Shown: one piece after another, positions 7,438-18,849 of the stretch
Layout: each line of letters starts with the position of its first letter
Numbering within the stretch: the stretch's first letter is position 1
Assembly (NCBI RefSeq): GCF_947489565.1
Contig: NZ_CANLEA010000006.1
Span: forward strand, 124,001 to 188,000
DNA: 64,000 nucleotides
From: an uncultured Kordia sp.
GTDB taxonomy: Bacteria; Bacteroidota; Bacteroidia; Flavobacteriales; Flavobacteriaceae
Direction of reading: 5' to 3'
Made by a program: the position numbers and the translations under genes
The notes under the pieces: model-generated
Database searches by the model: none
Seen by the model: only the letters and a program-made list of their open reading frames with translations
What the model was told of the DNA's origin: nothing

Positions 7438-9036
7438 ATGAAAAAAATTACCCTATTATTCATTTGTGTTTTTTTTGGAATACAGCAAAAAGTGTTAGCA
7501 CAACTATGCACCGATTCATCAATTATAACACTAACAACGCAACAGGAAGTTGATGATTTTGTAGCAACCTATGCTGGAACCTGTACTTCGGTGAATAATC
7601 TTAGAATTGTAAACTTTGCAGATCCAAATGCAGTTACAGATCTTTCAGGACTTTCTTTTCTTACAGAAATCACAGGATATTTTCAAATAGTGTCACAACA
7701 AAGTCTTCCTTCTTTAGCAGGGCTCGAAAATATTCAAAGCATAGAAGGCAATCTTCGGATTGTAAATTGTGATTTGCTTACAACAATTTCACTACCAAGT
7801 CTAACAGGTGTCGTGGCAAATATTGAAGTTAGTAATAATGACAACTTACAATCGATTATTTTAGGAAATGGAACCGGAAATATTATAACACGCAGCGGTC
7901 CTATAATGAAAAACAACCAACAATTATCTTCTTTAGATTTCACATTGTCTTATACACCTACAGCATCTGGGACAACAGAAATTTTTAATAATGATAATAT
8001 CACTTCCATAGCATTTTTAGGGAATTTATCTAATAATGATAGTCTTATACTTATAGAAGGAAATGCGTCTTTAACAAGTTTAAGTGATTTACAGTTAGGA
8101 ACAATAATACACAAGCTGACGCTGATCAATAATCCAATACAAAACATGGAAGGCTTTGAAACTGTAACCACCATTGTAGACATGGAAATCAGGCAAAGTA
8201 GTATCACTAGCTTATCGGGTCTTCAAAATGTAACGAGCATTGGAGACATGGAGATCAGGCAAAGCAGTTTGAATAATTTATTAGGTCTTCAAAGTGTAGA
8301 AGAAGTAGATGAACTCATTATTGAAGATACTAATATTACAGATTTACAAGGTCTAAACAACTTGGTTTCGGTTTCTAACAAAGTTGAATTATTAGCAAAT
8401 GCATCGCTCACAAGTTTAGCTGGCTTAGATAGCATGGCAGATATGGGAGTATTTAGAATCATAAATAATAATGCGCTTACCGATATTTCCGGAATAGCTA
8501 GTTTTCTCTCGTTTAATAGCTTAACATTAATATTAGAAAACAATTTGATATTATCGGATTGTTGTGCACTGCAAGAACTTATAGAACGCGGTGTAGATTA
8601 TTCCGAAATCAGATTAAATAATAATGCTTTTACTTGTTCGGATGTATTTGTTGCGCTTTCTAATTGTACTGATGATGGACTTTCTATTGCAGATGATAAC
8701 TGTGATGGTATTTCAAATCCAGATCAATTAGATACAGATAACGATGGTGTTGGTGATCCGTGTGATAACTGTCCGACAGTTGCCAATAACAATCAATTAG
8801 ATACGGACGGAAATGGAGTAGGAGACGCTTGTCAAGCACAAGCTGGAGCAGATACAGGTTTTGTCGGAATCAGTACTACAAATCCAGCGAGTAAACTACA
8901 TGTAGAAGATGGCGATGTATTTATCAGCAATATTAATCGTGGAATCATAATGAAATCAGCAGATGGAAAATGCTTCCGTTATCAACCCAATACAAATGGC
9001 ATGCTTGTCGGAACACAAATTGTATGTCCACAATAA
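7438..9036 (+). CDS. Secreted LRR / thrombospondin type 3 repeat protein, copy 2
   Basis: The second tandem paralogue is about 532 residues from the ATG at 7438. The frame opens at 7405, but that start lies inside the end of the previous gene and before the signal peptide [17 protein letters not shown], so a start at 7435/7438 is preferred. Its order matches its neighbours: LRR units, [15 protein letters not shown]-type thrombospondin 3 repeats, then the 60-residue C-terminal module ([19 protein letters not shown]). It is closer to copy 3 than to copy 1 (shared [13 protein letters not shown]-like and [14 protein letters not shown] segments), which suggests a later duplication. The acidic repeats should bind Ca2+. 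The ligand is unknown. Confidence 0.8.
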
Positions 9037-9063
9037 GCATACGTATATCTTTAAAAAAGACTT

Positions 9064-10731
9064 ATGAAAAAAAGCATACTTATATTAATCTGCCTTCTGG
9101 TTGGTATTCAACAACAAGTTTTAGCGCAATCATGTGGTAGTAGCAATTCAACGATATACCTATCTACACAACAAAATGTTGATGATTTTGTAGCCACCTA
9201 CGCAGGTACTTGTACTTCCGTAAATAACCTAAAAATCGGAAGTTTTCTGGATCCTAATGGTGTTACAGATATCTCAGGACTTTCTTTCTTAACAGAAATA
9301 ACAGGATTTTTGCAAATAGAAATACAACAAAGTCTTCCATCGTTAGCTGGATTAGAAAATATTCAAAGTATAGAAGGTGAAATTCGAATTGTAAATTGTG
9401 ATCTTCTTACAACAATTTCATTACCAAGCTTAACAGGTGTTGTATCTTCGATTAAAATTAATAATAATGATAATTTGCAATCAATTATTTTGGGAGATGG
9501 AACCACAAATATTATAACACGAATTGGTCCTAGTATAAAAAATAATGCACAGTTATCTAATTTAGATTTCACATTGTCTTACACGCCTACTGCGATAGGA
9601 GCAATAGAAATCTTTAATAATGATAGTCTCACTTCTATAGGATTCTTAGGGAATATATCTAATTTTAACAATCCTATCTATATTGAAGGAAATGCATCGT
9701 TGACGAGTTTAGGTTTGCTGACAGGATCAACAATACATCGTGTAAGTCTTATCAACAATCCAATACAAAACCTAGATGGTTTAGAGAACGTAACGATTAT
9801 AGGATATTTAGAAATCAGACAAAGCGACTTGATAAATGTACAAGGACTTCAAAATGTACAGCAAATCACTTCGGTCATTATTGAAGATTCTGATCTTATA
9901 AGTTTAGATGGATTAGAAAACCTAACAAACATCGGATACATGGAGATTAGAAATAGTAGCCTAACAAACCTTCTAGGACTTCAAAATGTAACAGAAATCA
10001 ATACGCTTATCATTGAAGATTCGAATTTGACTAATTTAGAGGGTTTAAGTAATATTCAAGATGTCACAGATAAACTAGAATTCTCTTCTAATACATTGCT
10101 AACAACTATTTCAGGATTAAATGTAAGCCGTTTTAATTATGGTTTGGAGTTAAGGAATAATCCAGGACTAACAGACATTTTACCTTTAAGAGACATGAGT
10201 TTTGTGGGTTTGAATTTAGTGATTGAAAATAATCCTCAACTAGAAGAATGTTGTGTGTTAGAAATCCTTTTAAACAGAAATGTTTCGCCATCAGAAATTA
10301 TACTCAATAACAATGGAGCTACGTGTTCAGATATAACAATAGCAACGACAAATTGTACTAGTGATGGACTTTCCACTGCTATAGATAATTGTGATGATAT
10401 TCTAAACCCAGATCAATTGGATGATGATAATGATGGTGTAGGAAATCCGTGTGACAATTGCCGTTATGTGGCCAACAATGATCAAATAGATGCAAATAAT
10501 GATGGTATTGGAGATGCATGTCAAACACAAGCTGGAGCAAATACAGGTTTTGTAGGAATCAGTACTACGAATCCAACGTCGAAACTCCAAGTAGAAGATG
10601 GCGATGTATATATAAGTAATATCTACCGCGGAATCATTCTAAAATCAGTTGATGGCAAATGTTTCCGATACAAACCCAATGCAAATGGTTCTTTAATTGG
10701 AATACAAATCACATGCCCAGAAGAAAATTAA
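9064..10731 (+). CDS. Secreted LRR / thrombospondin type 3 repeat protein, copy 3
   Basis: The third tandem paralogue has 555 residues. Its signal peptide ends near QVLAQS. It has the longest run of leucine-rich units of the three, with repeated LEIRQSDLINVQGLQNV and VIIEDSDLISLDGLENL strands, which indicates expansion by unit duplication. The thrombospondin type 3 region is DDDNDGVGNPCDNC followed by a second acidic repeat. The C-terminal module ends in CPEEN rather than CPQ. It follows copy 2 by 27 bases on the same strand and closes the operon before the terminator at 10739-10778. The likely role is a surface or secreted binding protein; the specificity cannot be read from sequence. Confidence 0.8.
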   Translation: MKKSILILICLLVGIQQQVLAQSCGSSNSTIYLSTQQNVDDFVATYAGTCTSVNNLKIGSFLDPNGVTDISGLSFLTEITGFLQIEIQQSLPSLAGLENIQSIEGEIRIVNCDLLTTISLPSLTGVVSSIKINNNDNLQSIILGDGTTNIITRIGPSIKNNAQLSNLDFTLSYTPTAIGAIEIFNNDSLTSIGFLGNISNFNNPIYIEGNASLTSLGLLTGSTIHRVSLINNPIQNLDGLENVTIIGYLEIRQSDLINVQGLQNVQQITSVIIEDSDLISLDGLENLTNIGYMEIRNSSLTNLLGLQNVTEINTLIIEDSNLTNLEGLSNIQDVTDKLEFSSNTLLTTISGLNVSRFNYGLELRNNPGLTDILPLRDMSFVGLNLVIENNPQLEECCVLEILLNRNVSPSEIILNNNGATCSDITIATTNCTSDGLSTAIDNCDDILNPDQLDDDNDGVGNPCDNCRYVANNDQIDANNDGIGDACQTQAGANTGFVGISTTNPTSKLQVEDGDVYISNIYRGIILKSVDGKCFRYKPNANGSLIGIQITCPEEN

Positions 10732-10738
10732 ACATAAA

Positions 10739-10778
10739 AAAAGAAGCTGTCTAAAATATTTTTCAGACAACTTCTTTT
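10739..10778. terminator. Bidirectional terminator between LRR operon and rpe
   Basis: The stem AAAAGAAG-c-TGTCT (10739-10752) pairs with AGACA-a-CTTCTTTT (10765-10778), with one mismatch, a 12-base loop and A/T runs on both sides. It sits between convergent genes and can serve both. Confidence 0.8.
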
Positions 10779-10802
10779 ATAAAATCTTAGAGGTCTATTT
10801 TT

Positions 10803-11462
10803 TTAAGAAACTAGCTGCTTCAAATTCTGAATCGTCTCTGTTGGATTCTCAGATTTAAAAACAAAACTTCCAGCAACCAATACGTCTGCACCAGCATCAA
10901 CCAATGCTTTTGCATTTTTATCATTTACGCCGCCATCAATTTCAATTTCGGTTGCAGCTCCTTTTTCAGTAATCAAGGCTTTTAGTTTTTTAACTTTATC
11001 ATACGTATTCTCAATAAACGATTGTCCTCCAAAACCAGGATTCACACTCATAATACATACCAAGTCAATATCTTGAATAACGTCTTCTAAGAGACTAATA
11101 TTTGTATGAGGATTCAATGCTACACCAGCTTTCATTCCGGCAGCTTTAATCGCCTGTAGCGTTCTGTGCAAGTGTGTGCAAGCTTCGTAATGTACAGTTA
11201 AAACATCTGCGCCTAAATCGGCAAAAGTTTGAATATAACGATCAGGATCAACGATCATTAAATGCACATCAATAGTTTTGGTAGCATGTTTATTAATTGC
11301 TTTTAAAACGGGCATTCCAAAGGAAATGTTCGGCACAAAAACGCCGTCCATAATATCAATATGAAACCAATCGGCTTCACTATTGTTTACCATTTCAATA
11401 TCGCGTTGTAAGTTGGCAAAATCTGCAGCCAAGATCGATGGCGCAATTCGTTTTGTAGACAT
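10803..11462 (-). CDS. rpe: Ribulose-phosphate 3-epimerase
   Basis: A 219-residue TIM-barrel enzyme that interconverts D-ribulose 5-phosphate and D-xylulose 5-phosphate in the pentose phosphate pathway. Diagnostic segments are APSILAADFANL at the N-terminus, the metal-binding HIDIMDGVFVPNISFG, VHLMIVDPDRYI, MSVNPGFGGQSF and the phosphate-binding EIDGGV...GADVLVAGS near the end. The frame extends upstream to 11537. The extra 25 residues are unrelated to the family and run through the rpoD terminator hairpin, so the ATG at 11462 (MSTKRIAPS) is the start. A TACTTTTG -7 box lies 31 bases upstream. Confidence 0.96.
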   Translation of the reverse strand: MSTKRIAPSILAADFANLQRDIEMVNNSEADWFHIDIMDGVFVPNISFGMPVLKAINKHATKTIDVHLMIVDPDRYIQTFADLGADVLTVHYEACTHLHRTLQAIKAAGMKAGVALNPHTNISLLEDVIQDIDLVCIMSVNPGFGGQSFIENTYDKVKKLKALITEKGAATEIEIDGGVNDKNAKALVDAGADVLVAGSFVFKSENPTETIQNLKQLVS

Positions 11463-11492
11463 AATTTGTAGTGTGTGTTGTTTGTTTGCCGA

Positions 11493-11500
11493 CAAAAGTA
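11493..11500 (-). promoter_or_regulatory. rpe promoter, -7 box TACTTTTG
   Basis: A perfect match to the Bacteroidota TAnnTTTG box on the minus strand, 31 bases before the rpe ATG. A TTG lies 20 bases upstream, inside the rpoD terminator hairpin. Confidence 0.65.
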
Positions 11501-11511
11501 CTATAAAATAA

Positions 11512-11534
11512 ACGCTCTCGCAATGCGAGAGCGT
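11512..11534 (-). terminator. rpoD terminator
   Basis: A perfect 10-bp GC-rich stem (ACGCTCTCGC / GCGAGAGCGT) has a 3-base loop. On the minus strand it is followed by TTATTTTATAG. It lies downstream of rpoD and immediately before the rpe promoter. Confidence 0.8.
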
Positions 11535-11600
11535 CATTCATCAATCAAAAAACGAACAGTTATGTTATAAAAACTAAACTGCTGTGCGGTTTATAGGAGA

Positions 11601-12464
11601 TTATCCTAAATATGTTTTTAATATTTTACTTCGTGATGTGTGCTTTAAACGACGAATCGCTTTTTCTTTAATTTGACGTACACGTTCACGAGTTAAGTCG
11701 AAAGTTTCTCCAATTTCTTCCAAAGTCATTGGATGTTGATTTCCTAATCCGAAATATAAACGGATTACATCTGCTTCTCTCGGCGTCAATGTCTCTAATG
11801 CACGCTCAATCTCTGTCTTTAAAGATTCATGTAATAATTCTTTATCAGGATTTGGCGATTCACCAGAATTCAATACGTCATACAAGTTCGAATCTTCTCC
11901 TTCAACCAATGGCGCATCCATTGATACGTGGCGTCCAGAATTTTTCATCGACTCTTTTACATCATTCACAGTCATGTCTAATTCCTTTGCAATTTCTTCT
12001 GCAGAAGGGATACGTTCATGACTTTGCTCAAGATACGCAAAAGTTTTATTAATTTTATTAATAGAACCAATTTTGTTCAAAGGCAAGCGTACAATACGCG
12101 ATTGTTCCGCTAATGCTTGCAAGATAGATTGTCTAATCCACCATACAGCATATGAAATAAATTTAAAACCACGCGTTTCATCAAAACGTTGTGCGGCTTT
12201 AATTAGACCCAAATTTCCTTCATTGATCAAATCAGGAAGTGTTAATCCTTGATTTTGATACTGCTTTGCAACCGATACTACGAAACGAAGGTTAGCTTTT
12301 GTTAATTTTTCTAGAGCAATTTGATCTCCAGCCTTGATTCTTTGAGCTAATTCTACTTCCTCGTCTGCTGTAATAAGGTCAACTTTACCGATTTCTTGAA
12401 GATATTTGTCTAAGGATGCAGTTTCCCTGTTGGTAACCTGCTTGGTAATTTTAAGTTGTCTCAT
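11601..12464 (-). CDS. rpoD: Primary RNA polymerase sigma factor (RpoD/SigA type)
   Basis: This 287-residue protein is the short housekeeping sigma factor typical of Bacteroidota, lacking the long acidic region 1.1 insertion of E. coli RpoD. Region 1.2 begins at about residue 14 ([14 protein letters not shown]). Region 2 contains [18 protein letters not shown] and the -10 recognition helix [13 protein letters not shown]. Region 3 spans roughly 130-200. Region 4 ends with [29 protein letters not shown], the -35/-33 recognition helix. This class reads the TTTG / TAnnTTTG promoters seen elsewhere in the window. It is monocistronic, with a strong hairpin terminator at 11512-11534. Confidence 0.97.
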
Positions 12465-12599
12465 GTAATCTACTTGGGATTTTATTCTTTGTGCATACGC
12501 TACTAGTTATACGTACGAATGTGTGCAAATGTTACAAAAAGGTAAAAAATATTTTAAATAAAGTTTTCTTAAAAATGTAACTTTTTAATAATTAGCAAA

Positions 12600-13361
12600 T
12601 TACACGCCTCTTTTGTCGCCATAAATATGTACGTGCAATCGGTCAGTATAGTGAAATTGATATTTTTTGCAGACTTCAATCAACCATTGTTGCTTCTTTT
12701 TTAAGGCTTCTGGCTTGGTTCCTTCGGGCATTAAGTACACTTTTTCGTTGGGAATTTTATACTTCTGGCAGATGTCTAACACTTCCGTGAGATCGTTCTC
12801 AGCCGAAATTACAAACTTAAAAACAGCCTTTTTGTTCGTAGAAAAGTATTCGTATGCTTCTGACTTTTCGCGCAATTTCTTCGGATTGTTTGAGTTGGCC
12901 AATTTCGGCGATACATTATATTGATCAATCAAAGTTTCAAAAGTAGCATCTGGTAAAAGTGTTCCGTTGGTTTCAATCTCAAAAAAATAATCATCCGCTT
13001 TTGTATTGAAAAATTCGATTAAAGCAGAAAGCTCTTGCAGTTGCATCATCGGTTCTCCACCAGTTAATACAATATTCTTGCAACCTGTTTTTGCGACTTC
13101 TTCATAGATTTCTTCCAGCGTAAGCGAAATAATCATTTCCTCCATTTTATACTTTGTATACGTTGGATCTTCGTCTTTTACATGCGAAAAACGCGTTTTC
13201 TCCCAATTCCACGTATAATCAGTATCGCACCAAATACAATGCAAATTGCAAAGCGATGTTCGAATAAACACGCTTGGTTGTCCCATATTTTTTCCTTCTC
13301 CTTGGATAGAGTGGAAAATTTCAGGTTTCCCGTCCAGATTTGCAATTTTCAATTTGGTCAT
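12600..13361 (-). CDS. queE: 7-carboxy-7-deazaguanine synthase (radical SAM)
   Basis: A 253-residue radical SAM enzyme that contracts 6-carboxytetrahydropterin to 7-carboxy-7-deazaguanine in queuosine (preQ0) biosynthesis. The QueE signature is clear: EIFHSIQGEG near the N-terminus, the [4Fe-4S] cysteines in SLCNLHCIWCDTDYTW (Cys38, Cys42, Cys45, CxxxCxxC spacing), and NIVLTGGEPMMQ for SAM/substrate binding. The frame extends 9 codons upstream, but MTKLKIANLDGKPEIF at 13361 is the natural start. Three TAnnTTTG boxes lie within 60 bases upstream. No other queuosine genes are in the window. Confidence 0.93.
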   Translation of the reverse strand: MTKLKIANLDGKPEIFHSIQGEGKNMGQPSVFIRTSLCNLHCIWCDTDYTWNWEKTRFSHVKDEDPTYTKYKMEEMIISLTLEEIYEEVAKTGCKNIVLTGGEPMMQLQELSALIEFFNTKADDYFFEIETNGTLLPDATFETLIDQYNVSPKLANSNNPKKLREKSEAYEYFSTNKKAVFKFVISAENDLTEVLDICQKYKIPNEKVYLMPEGTKPEALKKKQQWLIEVCKKYQFHYTDRLHVHIYGDKRGV

Positions 13362-13372
13362 ACACAATGCTT

Positions 13373-13421
13373 CAAAAGTAAACCACAAAATTAAAGCATT
13401 CCTTTTTGAGAGACAAAACTA
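13373..13421 (-). promoter_or_regulatory. Cluster of three -7 boxes upstream of queE
   Basis: Minus-strand TAnnTTTG matches occur at 13373-13380 (TACTTTTG), 13386-13393 (TAATTTTG) and 13414-13421 (TAGTTTTG). The outer two are better placed for an mRNA with a leader. Which is used cannot be decided from sequence. Confidence 0.45.
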
Positions 13422-13498
13422 TATGAAACTGAATGAAAATTGAATTGATATTTGTGAAAATCGCAAAAAATAAATTTTTCATTTGTGCTGATCGGGAT

Positions 13499-13526
13499 TT
13501 TGACTGTGATTATTGCAATAGATTTG
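13499..13526 (+). promoter_or_regulatory. Promoter of the HMG-CoA reductase lipid operon
   Basis: A TAGATTTG -7 box (13519-13526) is preceded by TTTG (13499-13502) with a 16-base spacer, somewhat short for the usual spacing. It ends 24 bases before the ATG at 13551. Confidence 0.5.
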
Positions 13527-13550
13527 ATATAGTATTAAAACTTAGAACTT

Positions 13551-15860
13551 ATGGAAATACCGATTATACCAGGAAGAGGACTTGTAACAAGCACTGCGAC
13601 CAACATGCGTTTGGATTTTTTAACGGCAAATGCTATTGAAACGAATGTAATTTCAGAAACTAGATTAGAATACCAAGACATTCGCGGAAATATTGAATCC
13701 TATATAGGAAGTACTGAAATTCCGTTGGGAATTGTTGGTCCGTTATTATTTAATGACAACGGAACACAAGAATTGACCTATTGTACCGCAGGAACTTTAG
13801 AAGGCGCTTTGATTGCAAGTATGAATAGAGGCGCCAAAGTCATTAGCAAAAGCAATGGTTTTTCAGCAGAAGTCAAATGGCAAAAAATGACACGCTCGCC
13901 GATGTTTATTTTTGAGAAAGCGAAAGAAGCAACAATTTTTAAACACTACATAAAAGATACATTTAGCAATATCAAAGCAGCAGCAGAAGCGCATTCCAAT
14001 CATGGAAAATTAATTGAAATCGATTGTATTCAAGATGCTACAGTTGTACATGCAAAGTTTAGCTATGAAACCGGCGATGCTTCTGGGCAAAATATGACAA
14101 CAACCTGTACGTGGCACGCCATGCTGTATTTGGTAGAAGCGTTTACAAAAGCAACGGGAATTGTGCCTGTTGATTTTGTGATTGAAGGAAATGGTGCATG
14201 CGATAAAAAAGTATCACAATATAATATAGATTCGGGAAGAGGAATTCATGTTGTTGCCGAATGTACAATTCCAGAAGAAATCATTACAAAAGTATTGCGA
14301 ACTACTTCTGAGAAGTTGATGCGTTGCTTTCATCCGTCTAAAAAATTAGCAGCAAAAGACGGAATGGTAGGTTATAATATTAATGTAGCCAATGCCATTG
14401 CGGCCATTTTTGTGGCAACGGGACAAGATTTGGCTTCCATTCACGAATCGAGTGTTGGCATTTTGCATTTGGCACAAAAAAATGGCGGATTGTATATGCA
14501 GTTAACCTTGCCAAATTTGGTCATTGGTAGTATTGGTGGCGGAACTTCTTTGCCAAGACAAGCACAAGCTTTGGAAATTATGGATTGCTATGGAAGCGGA
14601 AAAGTGAATCGATTTGCAAAGCTCATTGCAGGTTTTGCGTTAGGATTGGAAATTTCAACATATTCGGCAATTGTTAGTGGTGAATTCGCGAAAGCACATG
14701 AAAAACTAGGCAGAAACAAACCTGTACAATGGTTGTTGCCTTCGGAAGTGACTTCGAATTTTGTACAATCGAGTTTGAATGGTTTTTTTGAAGACAAGCA
14801 AATTCAGAACATACAACCGAAATCGCACGATGTATTGGAGAATGGAATTCTGACCAACATCGCATCAAAGGTTAATAAAAAAATCATTGGTTTTTTGCCG
14901 TTTCAAATTGATTATACACAACAAAACGGAAAAGCACAGACCAAAGATGTGCTGATAAAATCAAAACCGCTAGACGATGAGGTAATTAAAGGTTTGCATA
15001 CCATTGCGGCTTCTATTAATCCTGAGTTGTCGGATGTGTTGAAGAAATCAAAAAGGCATTTAGAATATCACAATTGTCATTTAAAAGAAATCGAAGTGTA
15101 TTCGTATTTACATAAAAACGGATTTGAAAATATGCCAAAATATTTTGGAAAACATGTCAATCCGAAACGTGAGATTTTCATGCTGATTCAAGAGTTTTTA
15201 CCTGTTGAGGAGATGAAAATTATGAATTCAGAGAATCATCCTGAATGTTGGAAACCTGGCGATATTATTTCGGTACTGAAAACAATTACGAAGTTTCATC
15301 AGTATACCAACGTGACTGATTTTTCACATGTGCCAGAATTTAAACCTTGGAATGCTGCGGCATTGTACAAAAAAATGATGCAGATTTTAATTGCGGAATG
15401 TGCTACAGAAAAAGATCAATTCACATTGCAAAAATTATTGAATGAGATTGATGATTTGCAATATCAAGCAAGTAAAATTTCGATAGAAAAAACCATCATT
15501 CATAATGATTTCAATCCAAGAAATATTGCCATACGAAAAGATGATGTTCCTGTTATTTACGATTGGGAATTGGCAGTAATCGATTTTCCTCAAAGAGATA
15601 TTGTAGAGTTTTTAAGTTTTACACTATTGCCAAATTTCAAAAAAGACGAACTCTACTTTTATCTAAAAACACAGTATCAAATGTACGATGGTGTGGGTTG
15701 GAATGAATGGTTAAAAGCATGCAGATATTCCTTAAAAGTATACATTATTACAAGACTTTCTTTTTATGAAGTTTCAGGAATTTTGATTGCGTACGATTTT
15801 TCAAAACGCGTTTTGCAAACAGCATTGCAAATGCTTACTTATTTAGAAGCTGATGCATAG
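13551..15860 (+). CDS. HMG-CoA reductase fused to APH/choline-kinase-like domain
   Basis: This 769-residue two-domain protein has an HMG-CoA reductase at about residues 1-410. The full catalytic set can be placed: Glu84 in TAGTLEGALIAS, Lys219 in CDKKVSQYN, Asp293 in ATGQDLAS and His383 in AKAHEKLGR. The NAD(P)-binding GDASGQNM (175-182) and IGSIGGGTSLPRQ (326-338) segments are also present. These point to an active class I-like reductase making mevalonate. Residues about 430-769 form an aminoglycoside-phosphotransferase/choline-kinase fold: a possible ATP lysine in VLIKSKP (470/472), the catalytic loop HNDFNPRN (His651, Asp653, Asn658) and the metal Asp671 in YDWE. Such a fusion is not a standard HMGR architecture. 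It heads a lipid-type operon, and its stop overlaps the next gene's start by 8 bases. The kinase substrate is unknown. Confidence 0.9.
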   Translation: MEIPIIPGRGLVTSTATNMRLDFLTANAIETNVISETRLEYQDIRGNIESYIGSTEIPLGIVGPLLFNDNGTQELTYCTAGTLEGALIASMNRGAKVISKSNGFSAEVKWQKMTRSPMFIFEKAKEATIFKHYIKDTFSNIKAAAEAHSNHGKLIEIDCIQDATVVHAKFSYETGDASGQNMTTTCTWHAMLYLVEAFTKATGIVPVDFVIEGNGACDKKVSQYNIDSGRGIHVVAECTIPEEIITKVLRTTSEKLMRCFHPSKKLAAKDGMVGYNINVANAIAAIFVATGQDLASIHESSVGILHLAQKNGGLYMQLTLPNLVIGSIGGGTSLPRQAQALEIMDCYGSGKVNRFAKLIAGFALGLEISTYSAIVSGEFAKAHEKLGRNKPVQWLLPSEVTSNFVQSSLNGFFEDKQIQNIQPKSHDVLENGILTNIASKVNKKIIGFLPFQIDYTQQNGKAQTKDVLIKSKPLDDEVIKGLHTIAASINPELSDVLKKSKRHLEYHNCHLKEIEVYSYLHKNGFENMPKYFGKHVNPKREIFMLIQEFLPVEEMKIMNSENHPECWKPGDIISVLKTITKFHQYTNVTDFSHVPEFKPWNAAALYKKMMQILIAECATEKDQFTLQKLLNEIDDLQYQASKISIEKTIIHNDFNPRNIAIRKDDVPVIYDWELAVIDFPQRDIVEFLSFTLLPNFKKDELYFYLKTQYQMYDGVGWNEWLKACRYSLKVYIITRLSFYEVSGILIAYDFSKRVLQTALQMLTYLEADA

Positions 15861-16368
15861 TTTTTTACACCATATATATATTGTGTTGCTGCCGTTAATC
15901 ATTTCGAATGTATTGCATATGTTCGTGATTAAAAAAGATATATTTCCGCAGTTAACGCGTCCAATTTCTCAAAAACTGTTTGGTGAAAACAAAACTTGGA
16001 GAGGTTTTGTCTTTGTTCCTATTGTGAATGCTGTTTTATTATATTGGATAAATTTCACTTTTGATCTTCAACTGCCGCAAGCTTTCTATATAGGATTCTT
16101 GCTTGGCTTTACGTATATGTTGTTTGAGTTGCCAAATTCATGGATGAAACGAAGACTCGGAATTCAGGCTGGACAACAAGCAACTTCTCATCAACTACTA
16201 TTTGCAATGATTGATAAAATGGATTCCGCTTTTGGCGTGACTTTGCTATATTTTGTAATAGGTTTTATCTCGCTTCCGCATGCGTTATTGCTCTTTGTTA
16301 TTTGTAGCGCTACGCATATCATGATCAGTCAACTCTTAGTTCAATTCAACATTAAAAAATCATTTTAA
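15853..16368 (+). CDS. CarS-like CDP-archaeol synthase / CTP:lipid cytidylyltransferase homologue
   Basis: A 171-residue polytopic membrane protein with about five hydrophobic segments. It shows the CarS/DUF46 signatures: KLFGENKTWRGF (residues 41-52), FELPNSWMKRRLGIQAG (91-107) and the acidic MIDKMDSAFG (119-128), where Asp121 and Asp124 would bind metal. Archaeal CarS transfers CMP from CTP to unsaturated archaetidic acid. Bacterial homologues are less well understood and may activate another phosphatidic-acid-like lipid. The start ATG lies within the last codons of the upstream HMGR-kinase gene, which indicates translational coupling. A phosphatidyltransferase follows after 1 base, consistent with its making the CDP-lipid that enzyme uses. 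Confidence 0.8.
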   Translation: MHSFLHHIYIVLLPLIISNVLHMFVIKKDIFPQLTRPISQKLFGENKTWRGFVFVPIVNAVLLYWINFTFDLQLPQAFYIGFLLGFTYMLFELPNSWMKRRLGIQAGQQATSHQLLFAMIDKMDSAFGVTLLYFVIGFISLPHALLLFVICSATHIMISQLLVQFNIKKSF

Positions 16369-16369
16369 C

Positions 16370-16957
16370 ATGCAAAAAGAAAATATATACAACGTTCCTA
16401 ACTTTTTAAGTTTTTACCGATTGCTTACGTTTCCATTAATTTTATGGTTTATCTATACAGGAGAAGAAAGTTTATTTGCTATATTTTTATGTGTGAATTT
16501 AATCACGGACATTCTAGACGGATTGATTGCACGAAGTTTCAATCTGCAAACCAAATTTGGCGCACGATTAGATTCACTCGCCGACAACGGAACATTCATT
16601 GCAGCTTTTATTGGAGTTTTTACATTTAAAATTGATGATTTTGCAAACTCTATTTGGATGCTTTGGTTGTTTATTGGTTTCTATATCTTAGGTTTGATTG
16701 TTTCTTTTATCAAATTCAAACAATATCCAAGTCTACACTTATACACCACAAAAATTGGAGGTTATGTACAAGGAATCTTCATTTTTATACTATTTGCGTG
16801 GAGTTACAACGAATATATGTTCTACATCGCAATGATTATTGGATACATTTCACATATAGAAGAAATCACGATTTTGCTCATTTCAAACGAAATGAAAACG
16901 GACGCCAAAGGTTTGTATTGGATTTTAAAAGAACAGAAAAAGTTAGTTACTCAATAA
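16370..16957 (+). CDS. CDP-alcohol phosphatidyltransferase family protein
   Basis: A 195-residue membrane enzyme with the complete CDP-OH-P family motif D-x2-D-G-x2-A-R-x8-G-x3-D-x3-D at residues 47-72 (Asp47, Asp50, Gly51, Ala54, Arg55, Gly64, Asp68, Asp72). The four aspartates bind the metal ions, and Asp72 is the expected general base. About six TM helices follow the usual pattern. The family moves a phosphatidyl (or archaetidyl) group from a CDP-lipid to an alcohol such as glycerol phosphate, inositol phosphate or serine. The acceptor cannot be read from sequence. It begins 1 base after the CarS-like gene, and the two probably act in sequence. Confidence 0.88.
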   Translation: MQKENIYNVPNFLSFYRLLTFPLILWFIYTGEESLFAIFLCVNLITDILDGLIARSFNLQTKFGARLDSLADNGTFIAAFIGVFTFKIDDFANSIWMLWLFIGFYILGLIVSFIKFKQYPSLHLYTTKIGGYVQGIFIFILFAWSYNEYMFYIAMIIGYISHIEEITILLISNEMKTDAKGLYWILKEQKKLVTQ

Positions 16958-16963
16958 AATAGT

Positions 16964-17043
16964 AATGTCAAATCGAGCGCAGTCGAGATTTCTTAATAAC
17001 GATCGTGGTTCTATAGTTTCTGGACTGTGCTCGAAGTGACACT
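16964..17043. repeat. REP-like imperfect inverted repeat
   Basis: Two arms of about 25 bases (from AATGTCAAATCGAGCGCAG at 16964 and ending CTGTGCTCGAAGTGACACT at 17043) are imperfect reverse complements, separated by about 30 bases. The core TCGAGCGCAGTCGA resembles palindromic intergenic repeats that are common in Flavobacteriaceae. It sits between the phosphatidyltransferase and GtrA-like genes. Confidence 0.6.
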
Positions 17044-17092
17044 GAATTTAAAATTTTTAACAGCAATAGTACATTGTAAACTATTCTTAATT

Positions 17093-17503
17093 ATGACTTT
17101 TAATTTTTACAAACAATCAGAAAATGTACGAATGCTTGTCATAGCAACGATTGGCATGATTTTGAGTTTGCTTACCTATGAAATCATATACTATCTCAAT
17201 CCGTTTTCGCCCAAAGCCACAATTAGTTGGACAATTGCTTTTATTATTGGAACGGCGCGACAACATGCGCTACATAGATACTTTACATTTTTACACAAAG
17301 GTTCTTATTTCAAAAGTTTATACCGAGCGTATATTGTAGATATTGGCGGTTTGGTGTTTACCACAGGACTCAATTGGTTTTTGTCCGAATTTTTACAAGT
17401 TCACCATCGTTTCGTTTGGGCATGTTGTGTAGCGGCTACGGCATTGATTGGTTTGGTGTTTCTTAAAAAATATATATTCAAACCTGTTGCCAATGCAGTG
17501 TAA
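17093..17503 (+). CDS. GtrA-like family membrane protein
   Basis: This 136-residue protein starts at the ATG at 17093 (MTFNFYKQSENVRM); the frame is open from 17027, but the upstream part overlaps a repeat. It has four TM segments and a GtrA-family feature, the aromatic/basic loop ARQHALHRYFTFLHKG after the second helix. GtrA proteins are associated with moving polyprenyl-phosphate-linked sugars across the membrane. The gene lies 136 bases after the CDP-alcohol transferase on the same strand and may share its transcript, although the inverted repeat between them could attenuate it. A transport role for a lipid made by the upstream enzymes is inference. Confidence 0.7.
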   Translation: MTFNFYKQSENVRMLVIATIGMILSLLTYEIIYYLNPFSPKATISWTIAFIIGTARQHALHRYFTFLHKGSYFKSLYRAYIVDIGGLVFTTGLNWFLSEFLQVHHRFVWACCVAATALIGLVFLKKYIFKPVANAV

Positions 17504-17733: not shown

Positions 17734-18849
17734 ATGGATTCAAACTTTTTTAATTTCTTATTGATAGCTGGAGCTGTTCAAGGTTTCATCTTTAATGGTT
17801 TCACATTATTTTCTAAAAAGAAAGTAGATCATGTGATCATTTTTTTGAATCTCACAGTTTTCTTTTTATCACTTAATAATTTACAAGCATGGTTGATTGC
17901 GAAAGATTTTCGTTTTGACTTCTTCTTTTTACGACAATTTTTAGTGCCTTGGTATATGTTTATTATGCCAATGTTTTATATGTTTCTAATTCATTATTTA
18001 AAGATTCAGGACAAAGTATCGAGCTATTTAAAACTAGCAGTTGCTTTGTTTGCGATAGAATTGATTGTACGCAGTATTTTTATTTTGAATGCTTCGGAAG
18101 CAGATGTTTCTTCGATTAAAATGTATACAACTATTGAAGAAATGGTGAATGCAGCGTTTTCAATTTTTCTTTTTTATAGATGTCTTCGAATTGTATTTAA
18201 AGAAAGCAAACTCCTTGATTTTATTGTAGATTATGACGATATAAAATGGTTGAAAATCTTTTTGATTCTAGGTGGATTCGTTATTACATTTTGGGTGTTG
18301 GCCATTGTGTTGAATACGTATTTTAAAGATGCACGCGCGTATTATCCGTTGCGTTTGGCGACTTCAGTATTGTTGTATTGGATCGGTTATCAAGGAACAT
18401 CGCGATATACTTTATTGCATGATCGAATTATGTTGCGTGGAAAATTGGCAGCATTAAAGCCGGAAACAACAGAAAAGATAGCGCAAGAAGCTGAAAATAA
18501 TTTATCAGAAAAGCATCAACAGGAATTTGAAACCATTGCTAACTATATTATTTCCAAACAACGCTACTTAGATTCAAAATTGAGTTTGGAGCAATTGTCT
18601 GATGAACTCGAAATTAGTGCGGGACATTTATCAAAATTGATCAATAATCATAGTGAATATAACTTTTCCGATTATATAAATTCGTTGCGAGTAGCACAGG
18701 CAAAAGCATTGCTCAAAGATGACGATTTTGACAATTATACGATTGTTGCTATTGGTTTGGAATGTGGATTTAATTCACGATCTACTTTTTACACAGCTTT
18801 CAAAAAGTTTACAGATCTTACACCTTCCGAATATCGAAAAACACATTAA
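17734..18849 (+). CDS. Membrane-anchored AraC-family transcriptional regulator
   Basis: A 371-residue protein with six or seven hydrophobic helices in the first ~235 residues, then a cytoplasmic linker and a C-terminal AraC/XylS DNA-binding domain (about 265-371). The first helix-turn-helix is LSLEQLSDELEISAGHLSKLINN, given here in parts: LEQLSDELEIS and AGHLSKLINN. The second includes IVAIGLECGFNSRSTFYTAFKK and the family-defining LTPSEYRK end. This polytopic-plus-AraC layout is widespread in Flavobacteriia and is thought to couple a membrane signal to transcription. The adjacent convergent gene is a hybrid histidine kinase; any functional link is unproven. No exact TAnnTTTG box was found, although TACTTTCA lies about 15 bases upstream. 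Confidence 0.88.
   Translation: MDSNFFNFLLIAGAVQGFIFNGFTLFSKKKVDHVIIFLNLTVFFLSLNNLQAWLIAKDFRFDFFFLRQFLVPWYMFIMPMFYMFLIHYLKIQDKVSSYLKLAVALFAIELIVRSIFILNASEADVSSIKMYTTIEEMVNAAFSIFLFYRCLRIVFKESKLLDFIVDYDDIKWLKIFLILGGFVITFWVLAIVLNTYFKDARAYYPLRLATSVLLYWIGYQGTSRYTLLHDRIMLRGKLAALKPETTEKIAQEAENNLSEKHQQEFETIANYIISKQRYLDSKLSLEQLSDELEISAGHLSKLINNHSEYNFSDYINSLRVAQAKALLKDDDFDNYTIVAIGLECGFNSRSTFYTAFKKFTDLTPSEYRKTH

What the first reader, a model, noticed from the sequence alone, without database searches (positions are those of the whole stretch)
13551..17503. HMGR-kinase fusion heading a CarS / CDP-alcohol transferase / GtrA operon
Four plus-strand genes in tight succession encode a mevalonate-pathway reductase fused to an APH/choline-kinase fold, a CarS-like CTP:lipid cytidylyltransferase, a complete CDP-alcohol phosphatidyltransferase and a GtrA-like protein. 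All four HMGR catalytic residues and the kinase loop (HxD...N, DWE) are present. Together these look like a dedicated pathway for an isoprenoid-linked or otherwise unusual polar lipid. I know of no described system with this gene set. The kinase could phosphorylate mevalonate, a polyol head group or an isoprenoid alcohol. The joint function is inference; the domain assignments are read from motifs.
Basis: partly seen in the sequence, partly recalled or inferred. Interest (0 to 1): 0.88.

Follow-up and report, generated by a model that had tools for sequence, protein, structure and literature searches.

The report
HMGR-kinase lipid operon in marine Flavobacteria
A conserved set of genes in marine Flavobacteria joins a repurposed relative of the cholesterol-pathway enzyme HMG-CoA reductase to an alcohol kinase and two lipid-building enzymes, and probably makes a membrane lipid that has not been described yet.

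Summary
13551-17503 (+) encodes an HMGR+APH fusion (769 aa), a CarS-like cytidylyltransferase homologue, a complete CDP-alcohol phosphatidyltransferase and a GtrA protein. Fusion, CarS and CDP-OH genes lie together in 11 of 11 related loci, with GtrA in 10.

The interpretation needs changing. The fusion's HMGR clade looks uncoupled from the mevalonate pathway: of 27 genomes examined, 21 carry it as their only HMGR and have IspH; the other 6 lack IspH but have a second HMGR. The catalytic residues remain, but two residues that contact the HMG moiety are changed: Lys735 in 56 of 56 domains, Ser684 to Glu/Asp in 55. A parallel operon combines an HMGR of another clade with an orthologous CDP-OH enzyme, a CdsA-type protein and a phytol-kinase-like protein.

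Best reading: a dedicated reductase, kinase, CTP-transferase, CDP-alcohol-transferase lipid pathway whose substrate is probably not HMG-CoA. Substrate and product are unknown. Against a strict unit: 4 of 7 fusion genomes in one sample lack a CDP-OH orthologue, and 5 of 13 genomes with the CDP-OH orthologue lack such an HMGR.

The parts
13551..15860 (+). Fusion gene, 769 aa: class-I-like HMGR domain + choline-kinase/APH-fold kinase domain
   Evidence: full-length relatives
13605..14714 (+). HMGR-like reductase domain (residues 19-388); catalytic Glu84, Lys219, Asp293, His383; altered positions Glu212 (human Ser684), Ser263 (human Lys735), Asn278 (human His752)
   Evidence: PF00368 2.2e-95; residue mapping
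14733..15857 (+). Kinase domain (residues 395-769), choline-kinase/APH fold, catalytic loop H651-N-D653...N658, D671-W-E
   Evidence: PF01636 7.2e-14; model of residues 392-769 with pLDDT 92.5; structural neighbours
15853..16368 (+). CarS-like / CTP-transferase-clan protein, 171 aa; conserved FGxNKTWRG, ELPNSxxKR, DKxDS; start overlaps the end of the fusion gene by 8 bp
   Evidence: PF01864 1.2e-8; alignment; PDB 5guf 0.009; overlap
16370..16957 (+). CDP-alcohol phosphatidyltransferase, 195 aa, complete signature D47xxD50G51xxA54R55(x8)G64xxxD68xxxD72
   Evidence: PF01066 1.6e-24; alignments
17093..17503 (+). GtrA/DPMS-type transmembrane protein, 136 aa from the likely ATG start (the mechanical ORF starts at GTG 17027)
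   Evidence: PF04138 5.1e-8; conserved block begins at this ATG
13499..13526 (+). Candidate Bacteroidetes-type promoter TTTG-N16-TAGATTTG, 24 bp before the fusion ATG (consensus TTTG...TAnnTTTG recalled, spacing slightly short)
   Evidence: sequence, word scan (the stricter pattern with spacing 17-23 gave no match); not tested for function

Best explanation
A dedicated lipid-assembly operon. The N-terminal domain is a repurposed class-I-like HMG-CoA reductase that reduces a CoA thioester, probably not HMG-CoA, by four electrons to a primary alcohol. The fused choline-kinase-fold domain phosphorylates that alcohol. The CarS-like membrane protein turns the resulting lipid phosphate into a CDP-activated lipid with CTP, and the CDP-alcohol transferase passes the phospho-lipid unit to an alcohol, giving a phosphodiester polar lipid. 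GtrA is an accessory membrane (flippase-like) protein. Shown by sequence: domains, intact catalytic residues, operon conservation, changed HMG-contacting residues, genome-level separation from the mevalonate pathway, and an analogous operon with other kinase-like and cytidylyltransferase families. Inferred: the reaction order, that all act on one molecule, the lipophilic nature of the alcohol, and every substrate.
For: Domain order reductase-kinase / CTP-transferase / CDP-OH transferase in tight succession, conserved in 11 of 11 fetched relatives and in 2 more distant genomes (L097, L098). The HMGR clade is uncoupled from the mevalonate pathway by genome content: 21 of 27 genomes have it as sole HMGR plus IspH; 6 of 27 lack IspH and have a second HMGR; the window genome's second one is class II beside a GHMP kinase. 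HMG-contacting residues are changed: Lys735 absent in 56/56 domains, Ser684 acidic in 55/56, catalytic Glu559, Lys691 and Asp767 kept in 56/56; a passage of PMC9500038 gives the contacts of the HMG moiety of a bound statin. Analogous operon in G582, G669, G613: an unfused HMGR of a different clade, a CDP-OH orthologue (47-51% identical), a CdsA-type protein and a phytol/dolichol-kinase-like CTPk protein in place of CarS and the APH domain. In the four fusion genomes without the CDP-OH orthologue the fusion lies directly next to a fatty-acid-desaturase-family gene, and sister HMGRs lie in clusters with UbiA, BtaA-like and acyl-CoA-ligase-like genes, pointing to a lipidic alcohol. CDP-OH orthologue and class-I-like HMGR co-occur in 8 of 13 genomes against 21 of 395 overall (Fisher 1.8e-8, not corrected for relatedness).
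Against: 4 of 7 fusion genomes in the Flavobacteriales sample have no CDP-OH orthologue (best hit 41 bits or less; these genomes are 74-88% complete). 5 of 13 CDP-OH-orthologue genomes have no such HMGR at E 1e-5, and 4 of these carry a patatin-CarS-CDP-OH set instead, so the two halves can work apart. The CTPk protein has at best a sub-threshold Pfam match (CTP_transf_1, 0.022) and no NCBIfam match; its kinase role rests on motifs I recall, not on a family hit. The kinase fold's nearest structures (homoserine, choline, aminoglycoside kinases) mostly act on small polar alcohols. An acidic residue at the old Ser684 position is not what one would predict for a plain alkyl chain. The alignment around Lys735 contains a one-residue gap. 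No structure of the HMGR domain good enough to inspect the pocket was obtained.
Confidence: 0.42

Rival explanations
1. Convergent pathway (phosphatidylglycerophosphate-synthase-like). The HMGR-kinase fusion makes a small phosphorylated head-group alcohol; CarS (or, in the parallel operon, CTPk plus CdsA acting as diacylglycerol kinase and CDP-diacylglycerol synthase) makes the CDP-lipid; the CDP-OH enzyme joins the two.
For: The CDP-OH protein's best NCBIfam scores are to the short ClsA/PgsA/archaetidylinositol-phosphate-synthase types, which use CDP-lipids. CarS+CDP-OH or CTPk+CdsA+CDP-OH occur without any such HMGR in 5 genomes, as expected if they are a self-sufficient lipid-activating half. 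The kinase's structural neighbours act mostly on small alcohols.
Against: A dedicated cytidylyltransferase beside the housekeeping one would be redundant unless the lipid is special. The Lys-Thr/Asn block of PgsA/ClsA (recalled) reads KIGGYVQ here. Fatty-acid-desaturase-family genes beside the fusion suggest a lipidic product of the fusion.
Confidence: 0.3
2. The fusion is a true HMG-CoA reductase plus an APH-type mevalonate kinase that feeds an isoprenoid (for example GGGP-like) lipid made by CarS and the CDP-OH enzyme.
For: All four HMGR catalytic residues, the DKK motif and the Arg590 equivalent are kept. The genome encodes a geranylgeranylglyceryl-phosphate synthase homologue above cut-off. 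CarS-like proteins are best known from archaeal isoprenoid lipids. In one relative (L145), CarS and CDP-OH lie near a UbiA prenyltransferase.
Against: Lys735 and Ser684 equivalents are changed throughout the clade, and the fusions also have Asn for His752. Score 267 against the NADPH-HMGR equivalog cut-off of 441.8. In 27 of 27 genomes examined the clade occurs either with IspH or beside a second HMGR. No other mevalonate or prenyltransferase gene is in the window's operon.
Confidence: 0.15
3. No single pathway: co-regulated but separate lipid genes that were kept together in one lineage.
For: In more distant relatives the fusion and the CarS/CDP-OH pair are found apart.
Against: Overlapping, constant gene order in relatives, and the recurrence of an orthologous CDP-OH enzyme with an HMGR of a different clade plus a CdsA-type protein.
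Confidence: 0.1

Closest known systems
Class I HMG-CoA reductase (mevalonate pathway; e.g. PDB 6hr7, archaeal)
   Same: Fold family (PF00368) and catalytic Glu, Lys, Asp, His; DKK loop; 4.8e-69 to 6hr7
   Different: Fused to a kinase; Ser684 and Lys735 equivalents changed; far below the NADPH-HMGR equivalog cut-off; the genome has another HMGR next to a GHMP kinase
Choline/ethanolamine kinase and aminoglycoside phosphotransferase superfamily
CDP-archaeol synthase (CarS) and CdsA
   Same: PF01864 above cut-off; KT..G, S..KR and D..D motifs align with 5guf
   Different: 46.6 bits against the CarS equivalog cut-off of 148; bacterial; partner of an HMGR-kinase, not of a known archaeal lipid set
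Bacterial/archaeal CDP-alcohol phosphotransferases (PgsA, ClsA, archaetidylinositol phosphate synthase)
   Same: PF01066 and full signature; 195 aa
   Different: 43-54 bits against equivalog cut-offs of 109-240; a distinct subfamily with its own PSLHLYxxKIGGYxQG and GLYW blocks
Kennedy pathway (alcohol, phospho-alcohol, CDP-alcohol, phospholipid)
   Same: Step logic kinase, CTP-transferase, CDP-OH transferase (pathway recalled)
   Different: Starts from a CoA thioester through a reductase domain; the cytidylyltransferase is a membrane CarS/CdsA-type protein
Archaeal-type lipid genes in the FCB group (Ca. Cloacimonetes, PMC7852524)
   Same: Bacterial relatives of archaeal lipid enzymes; GGGPS in the genome
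   Different: The passages seen report that CarS was not detected in those MAGs; the term HMG-CoA does not occur in the paper's main text

Membership tests
HMG-CoA reductase, class I (EC 1.1.1.34) | PF00368 fold and catalytic Glu/Lys/Asp/His | tested here: met
   2.2e-95; residues kept in the window and in the clade
HMG-CoA reductase, class I (EC 1.1.1.34) | Residues that contact the HMG moiety at its carboxylate end (Lys735, Ser684, human numbering) | tested here: not met
   Ser263 and Glu212 in the window; 0 of 56 domains have Lys735, 0 of 56 have Ser684; contacts from a PMC9500038 passage on bound statin
HMG-CoA reductase, class I (EC 1.1.1.34) | NCBIfam NADPH-HMGR equivalog cut-off (441.8 bits) | tested here: not met
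   267.2 bits
HMG-CoA reductase, class I (EC 1.1.1.34) | Serves the mevalonate pathway | tested here: inconclusive
   Genome content speaks against it: a separate class II HMGR + GHMP kinase in the window genome; 21 of 27 genomes of the clade have IspH. Flux was not measured
HMG-CoA reductase, class I (EC 1.1.1.34) | Converts HMG-CoA to mevalonate | not testable with these tools
   needs an enzyme assay
APH / choline-kinase superfamily | Fold and catalytic motifs | tested here: met
Choline/ethanolamine kinase | PF01633 curated cut-off | tested here: not met
   16.7 bits, cut-off 29
CarS (CDP-archaeol synthase) | PF01864 curated cut-off | tested here: met
   35.6 bits, cut-off 22; three distant relatives tested (L018, L145, L146) fall below it
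CarS (CDP-archaeol synthase) | NCBIfam CarS equivalog cut-off | tested here: not met
   46.6 bits, cut-off 148
CarS (CDP-archaeol synthase) | Uses unsaturated archaetidic acid and CTP | not testable with these tools
   needs an assay
CDP-alcohol phosphotransferase (PF01066) | Signature DxxDGxxAR(x8)GxxxDxxxD and family cut-off | tested here: met
   87.5 bits, cut-off 22; motif invariant in 12 sequences
PgsA or ClsA | NCBIfam equivalog cut-offs | tested here: not met
   53.1 of 109.1 and 53.5 of 240 bits
GtrA/DPMS transmembrane family | PF04138 cut-off | tested here: met
   33.6 bits, cut-off 26.1
Archaeal ether-lipid pathway | GGGPS in the genome | tested here: met
   but on another contig (C26), not linked to the operon
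Archaeal ether-lipid pathway | UbiA-type DGGGP synthase linked to CarS | tested here: inconclusive
   None in the window's operon; in one relative (L145) CarS, UbiA and CDP-OH lie within 6 kb

The most novel reading that the evidence does not exclude
The HMG-CoA reductase scaffold has been repurposed across the Bacteroidota into a reductase for another acyl-CoA (for example a 3-hydroxyacyl-CoA). In Kordia and kin it is fused to its own alcohol kinase, so that cells build a phospholipid on a long-chain alcohol or 1,3-diol phosphate (glycerol-free), activated by CarS and headed by the CDP-alcohol transferase: a new class of membrane phospholipid and a new role for a very well studied enzyme family.
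Probability: 0.15. Interest if true: 0.88.

Novelty: new variant of a known kind. Interest (0 to 1): 0.68.

Why it matters
HMG-CoA reductase is among the most studied enzymes of all, and matches to its Pfam family are easily taken for the mevalonate-pathway enzyme. Here a bacterial clade keeps the catalytic residues but has lost residues that contact HMG, sits in genomes that make isoprenoids another way or with another HMGR, and is wired into lipid operons. If right, database names for this clade are misleading, and there is at least one undescribed polar lipid class in marine Flavobacteria (Kordia includes algicidal species, recalled). The fusion carries the reductase and the presumed next step's kinase in one polypeptide, which makes the substrate question directly testable in vitro.

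Tried and rejected
Full-length fold of the fusion from 12 rows gave mean pLDDT 57 and was not used; no HMGR pocket was inspected. Search of the kinase profile against PDB sequences returned mostly Ser/Thr kinases by the short catalytic loop, not informative; the fold comparison lists many families within 2.6 Z units, so it does not name a substrate. Spread by plasmid was checked with the CDP-OH protein in the plasmid collection: no match at 1e-15. CarS as a general Bacteroidota gene: at E 1e-5, of 395 phylum genomes only the window's own has a strong match; 7 others gave weak hits in 277-367-aa frames, taken as CdsA. The order-level stretches show CarS-like genes in further Flavobacteriales (L097, L098, L145-L149).

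Literature: searches listed no paper on this gene set or on an HMGR-APH fusion. Papers were seen only in passages: PMC12419801 (mentions an HMGR beside a GHMP kinase, not this set), PMC3875450 (lists the HMGR pocket residues), PMC9500038, PMC7852524 and PMC13001223 (notes HmgR in Streptomyces with a complete MEP pathway, so 'HMGR in MEP bacteria' itself is not new). The library holds only open-licence papers and no preprints. Considered and rejected: misassembly or chance fusion (18 distinct fusion HMGR-domain sequences); degenerate kinase (motifs nearly invariant).

Limits of counts: searches used 25 of the 32 hit genomes plus G179 and G195. In the tree, 52 of the 56 HMGR domains were used plus 6hr7; L084 and L090 were labelled cluster 2 without their context having been checked, and L072 was labelled fusion+desaturase before this was confirmed. 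The tree is a quick one and warns of long branches. L060 gave no HMGR frame in my ORF filter, stopped the script, and was left out of the neighbourhood counts. G179 and L017, and G195 and L015, are probably the same genomes. The Fisher test assumes that the samples coincide. The CdsA-type name rests on Pfam above cut-off; its NCBIfam CdsA score (82 bits) is below that model's cut-off of 385.


Full report
1. What is there. The window comes from a Flavobacteriaceae genome closest to Kordia: 84% fusion identity to a Kordia MAG, and the neighbouring QueE, sigma-70 and Rpe genes stand in the same order in the five Kordia loci. Four plus-strand genes follow one another: a 769-aa fusion at 13551-15860, a 171-aa CarS-like protein at 15853-16368, a 195-aa CDP-alcohol phosphatidyltransferase at 16370-16957, and a GtrA protein up to 17503. 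Pfam confirms all of them above the curated cut-offs. In the window and in the 10 relatives checked by script (L008-L017) the CarS frame, as aligned, begins 8 bp before the end of the fusion gene (in L014 with an ATA codon there, so its true start may differ), and the CDP-OH gene begins 1-11 bp after CarS, which suggests translational coupling. In the most distant of the named relatives, L018, the genes do not overlap but follow after 9 and 10 bp. GtrA is separated by about 135 bp if it starts at ATG 17093. A promoter-like TTTG-N16-TAGATTTG lies at 13499-13526.

2. Conservation. A scan of named genomes returned 11 loci: Kordia (5), Bizionia (2), Psychroserpens, Winogradskyella, an unclassified Flavobacteriaceae and a Flavobacteriales MAG. 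All 11 have fusion + CarS + CDP-OH in this order, and 10 of 11 have GtrA next; the eleventh, L018 (48-50% identical), has an ICMT/PEMT-type methyltransferase there instead. In 10 of 11 the sigma-70 and Rpe genes lie in the same fetched stretch, so the location looks ancestral. The fusion is rare: 3 of 199 sampled family genomes, 7 of 395 sampled Flavobacteriales, one of them cut by a contig end, and, as a full-length match, 1 of 395 sampled phylum genomes.

3. The reductase domain is probably not the mevalonate-pathway enzyme. The window genome has a second HMGR, class II by NCBIfam above cut-off, directly followed by a GYDIA-family GHMP kinase. Class-I-like HMGRs related to the fusion were found in 32 of 395 phylum genomes; in that sample only the window's is fused to the kinase over the full length. 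I examined 25 of these 32, plus two more fusion genomes, for HMGR and IspH. In 21 of 27 the class-I-like gene is the only HMGR and IspH is present, so isoprenoids presumably come from the MEP pathway. In the other 6 (G000, G179, G195, G222, G259, G348) IspH is absent and a second HMGR is present. Only the window's second HMGR was typed as class II; the others are inferred from their size and score.

4. The active site. I aligned 56 distinct HMGR domains with archaeal 6hr7 (recounted). Equivalents of human Glu559, Arg590, Asp690, Lys691, Lys692, Asn755 and Asp767 are kept in 56 of 56, and His866 in 55 (one contig ends before it). Lys735 is absent in 56 of 56 (Ser 43, Ala 10, Gly 2, Cys 1), Ser684 is Glu in 53, Asp in 2 and Ala in 1, and His752 is Asn in all 18 fusion domains, His in 37 unfused ones and Gln in one. 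A passage of PMC9500038 states, for a bound statin, that the carboxylate of its HMG moiety forms a salt bridge with Lys735 and that Ser684 makes a conserved polar contact; that Ser684 too lies at the carboxylate is recalled. The archaeal, plant and human class I enzymes keep both residues in the alignments. The alignment around Lys735 has a one-residue gap; many fusions have neighbouring Lys/Arg residues, but no basic position there is constant across the 18 fusions. I read this as a change of acyl substrate with retained thioester-to-alcohol chemistry; that is inference.

6. An analogous operon. In G582, G669 and G613 an unfused HMGR stands with a CTPk protein (signature of phytol/dolichol kinases as I recall it; at best a weak CTP_transf_1 hit), a CdsA-type protein (CTP_transf_1 5e-37 to 1e-39, above cut-off; 82 bits to the NCBIfam CdsA model, below its cut-off) and a CDP-OH protein 47-51% identical to the window's. 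In the HMGR tree the fusions form one clade (SH-aLRT 100), while the HMGRs of this operon fall among the unfused ones (98) (quick tree with long-branch warnings). So the same CDP-OH subfamily stands with HMGRs of two clades, either paired anew or long diverged, each time with a kinase or kinase-like protein and a cytidylyltransferase, but from different families. This is the strongest evidence that the steps belong together.

7. Evidence against a strict unit. CDP-OH orthologues (250 bits or more; the next group is at 139 or less) occur in 13 of 391 Flavobacteriales genomes. Eight of the 13 have a class-I-like HMGR; in two of these eight (G664, G836) it lies elsewhere in the genome. Five have none at E 1e-5 (G771, G684, G688, G807, G900). 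In four of those five the set is patatin-CarS-CDP-OH; in G771 it is CTPk-CdsA-CDP-OH. Conversely, 4 of 7 fusion genomes in the sample (G823, G897, G871, G623; 74-88% complete) have only a CDP-OH hit of 41 bits or less and no CarS in the stretches fetched; in all four the fusion lies directly next to a fatty-acid-desaturase-family gene (L094, where only its end is on the contig, L095, L096, L099). The fusion and the CarS/CDP-OH pair are therefore two modules.

8. Wider setting. Unfused HMGRs of the sister clade form a conserved cluster HMGR-UbiA-PPDK-like-DUF3419(BtaA-like)-CTPk, often with a GNAT and an AMP ligase, in 12 stretches (L049, L050, L053, L054, L055, L061, L100, L105, L106, L107, L109, L110; Pfam-checked in L053). 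A third clade carries Pfam's HMG-CoA_red_N domain (tested in one member, L056); that gene lies near a long-chain acyl-CoA-ligase-like gene, but I saw no constant neighbour in the other stretches of this clade (L057, L058, L059, L062). In L051, L104 and L108 the HMGR stands alone. So a lipid context is common, not universal, in this HMGR group.

9. Verdict. Real, conserved, and not described in the papers I could search. The most likely mechanism is thioester to alcohol, alcohol phosphate, CTP activation, phosphodiester lipid, with a linear order slightly preferred over the convergent head-group order. Substrate and lipid are unknown.

Noticed in passing
L049, L050, L053, L054, L055, L061, L100, L105, L106, L107, L109, L110: Conserved Bacteroidota cluster HMGR-like + UbiA + PEP-synthase-like (PPDK_N) + DUF3419 (BtaA-like) + CTPk, often with GNAT and AMP ligase; looks like another undescribed lipid pathway.
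   Followed up: partly
loci L021-L046 with frames of about 515-612 aa (e.g. L056:9572-11113): Class-I-like HMGRs in genomes with IspH; one tested member carries Pfam's HMG-CoA_red_N domain; they share the loss of the Lys735 and Ser684 equivalents and may not be HMG-CoA reductases.
   Followed up: partly
L146-L149 (G900, G684, G688, G807): Patatin-like phospholipase + CarS-like + CDP-OH transferase set in small genomes of 1.6-1.7 Mb, without any HMGR-like gene found.
   Followed up: partly
L145 (G664) 8135-14863: CarS, UbiA, PPDK-like, ICMT-like, CDP-OH and desaturase-like genes in one 7-kb stretch; an archaeal-lipid-like assortment in a Flavobacteriales genome.
   Followed up: partly
L094, L095, L096, L099: Fusion gene overlapping or touching a fatty-acid-desaturase-family gene (L095's nearest NCBIfam model is a guanitoxin-pathway arginine hydroxylase, sub-threshold).
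   Followed up: partly
window 17734-18849: AraC-type regulator, with an N-terminal half that looks membrane-spanning, just downstream of the operon; found in 4 of 11 relatives (all Kordia), so perhaps not part of it.
   Followed up: no
G000:C26:16689-17327 (L111): Geranylgeranylglyceryl-phosphate synthase homologue above the NCBIfam cut-off in the window's genome, not linked to the operon.
   Followed up: no
G000 whole genome: Only two CDP-OH_P_transf proteins in the window's genome: the operon's and a 295-aa frame on contig C13.
   Followed up: no
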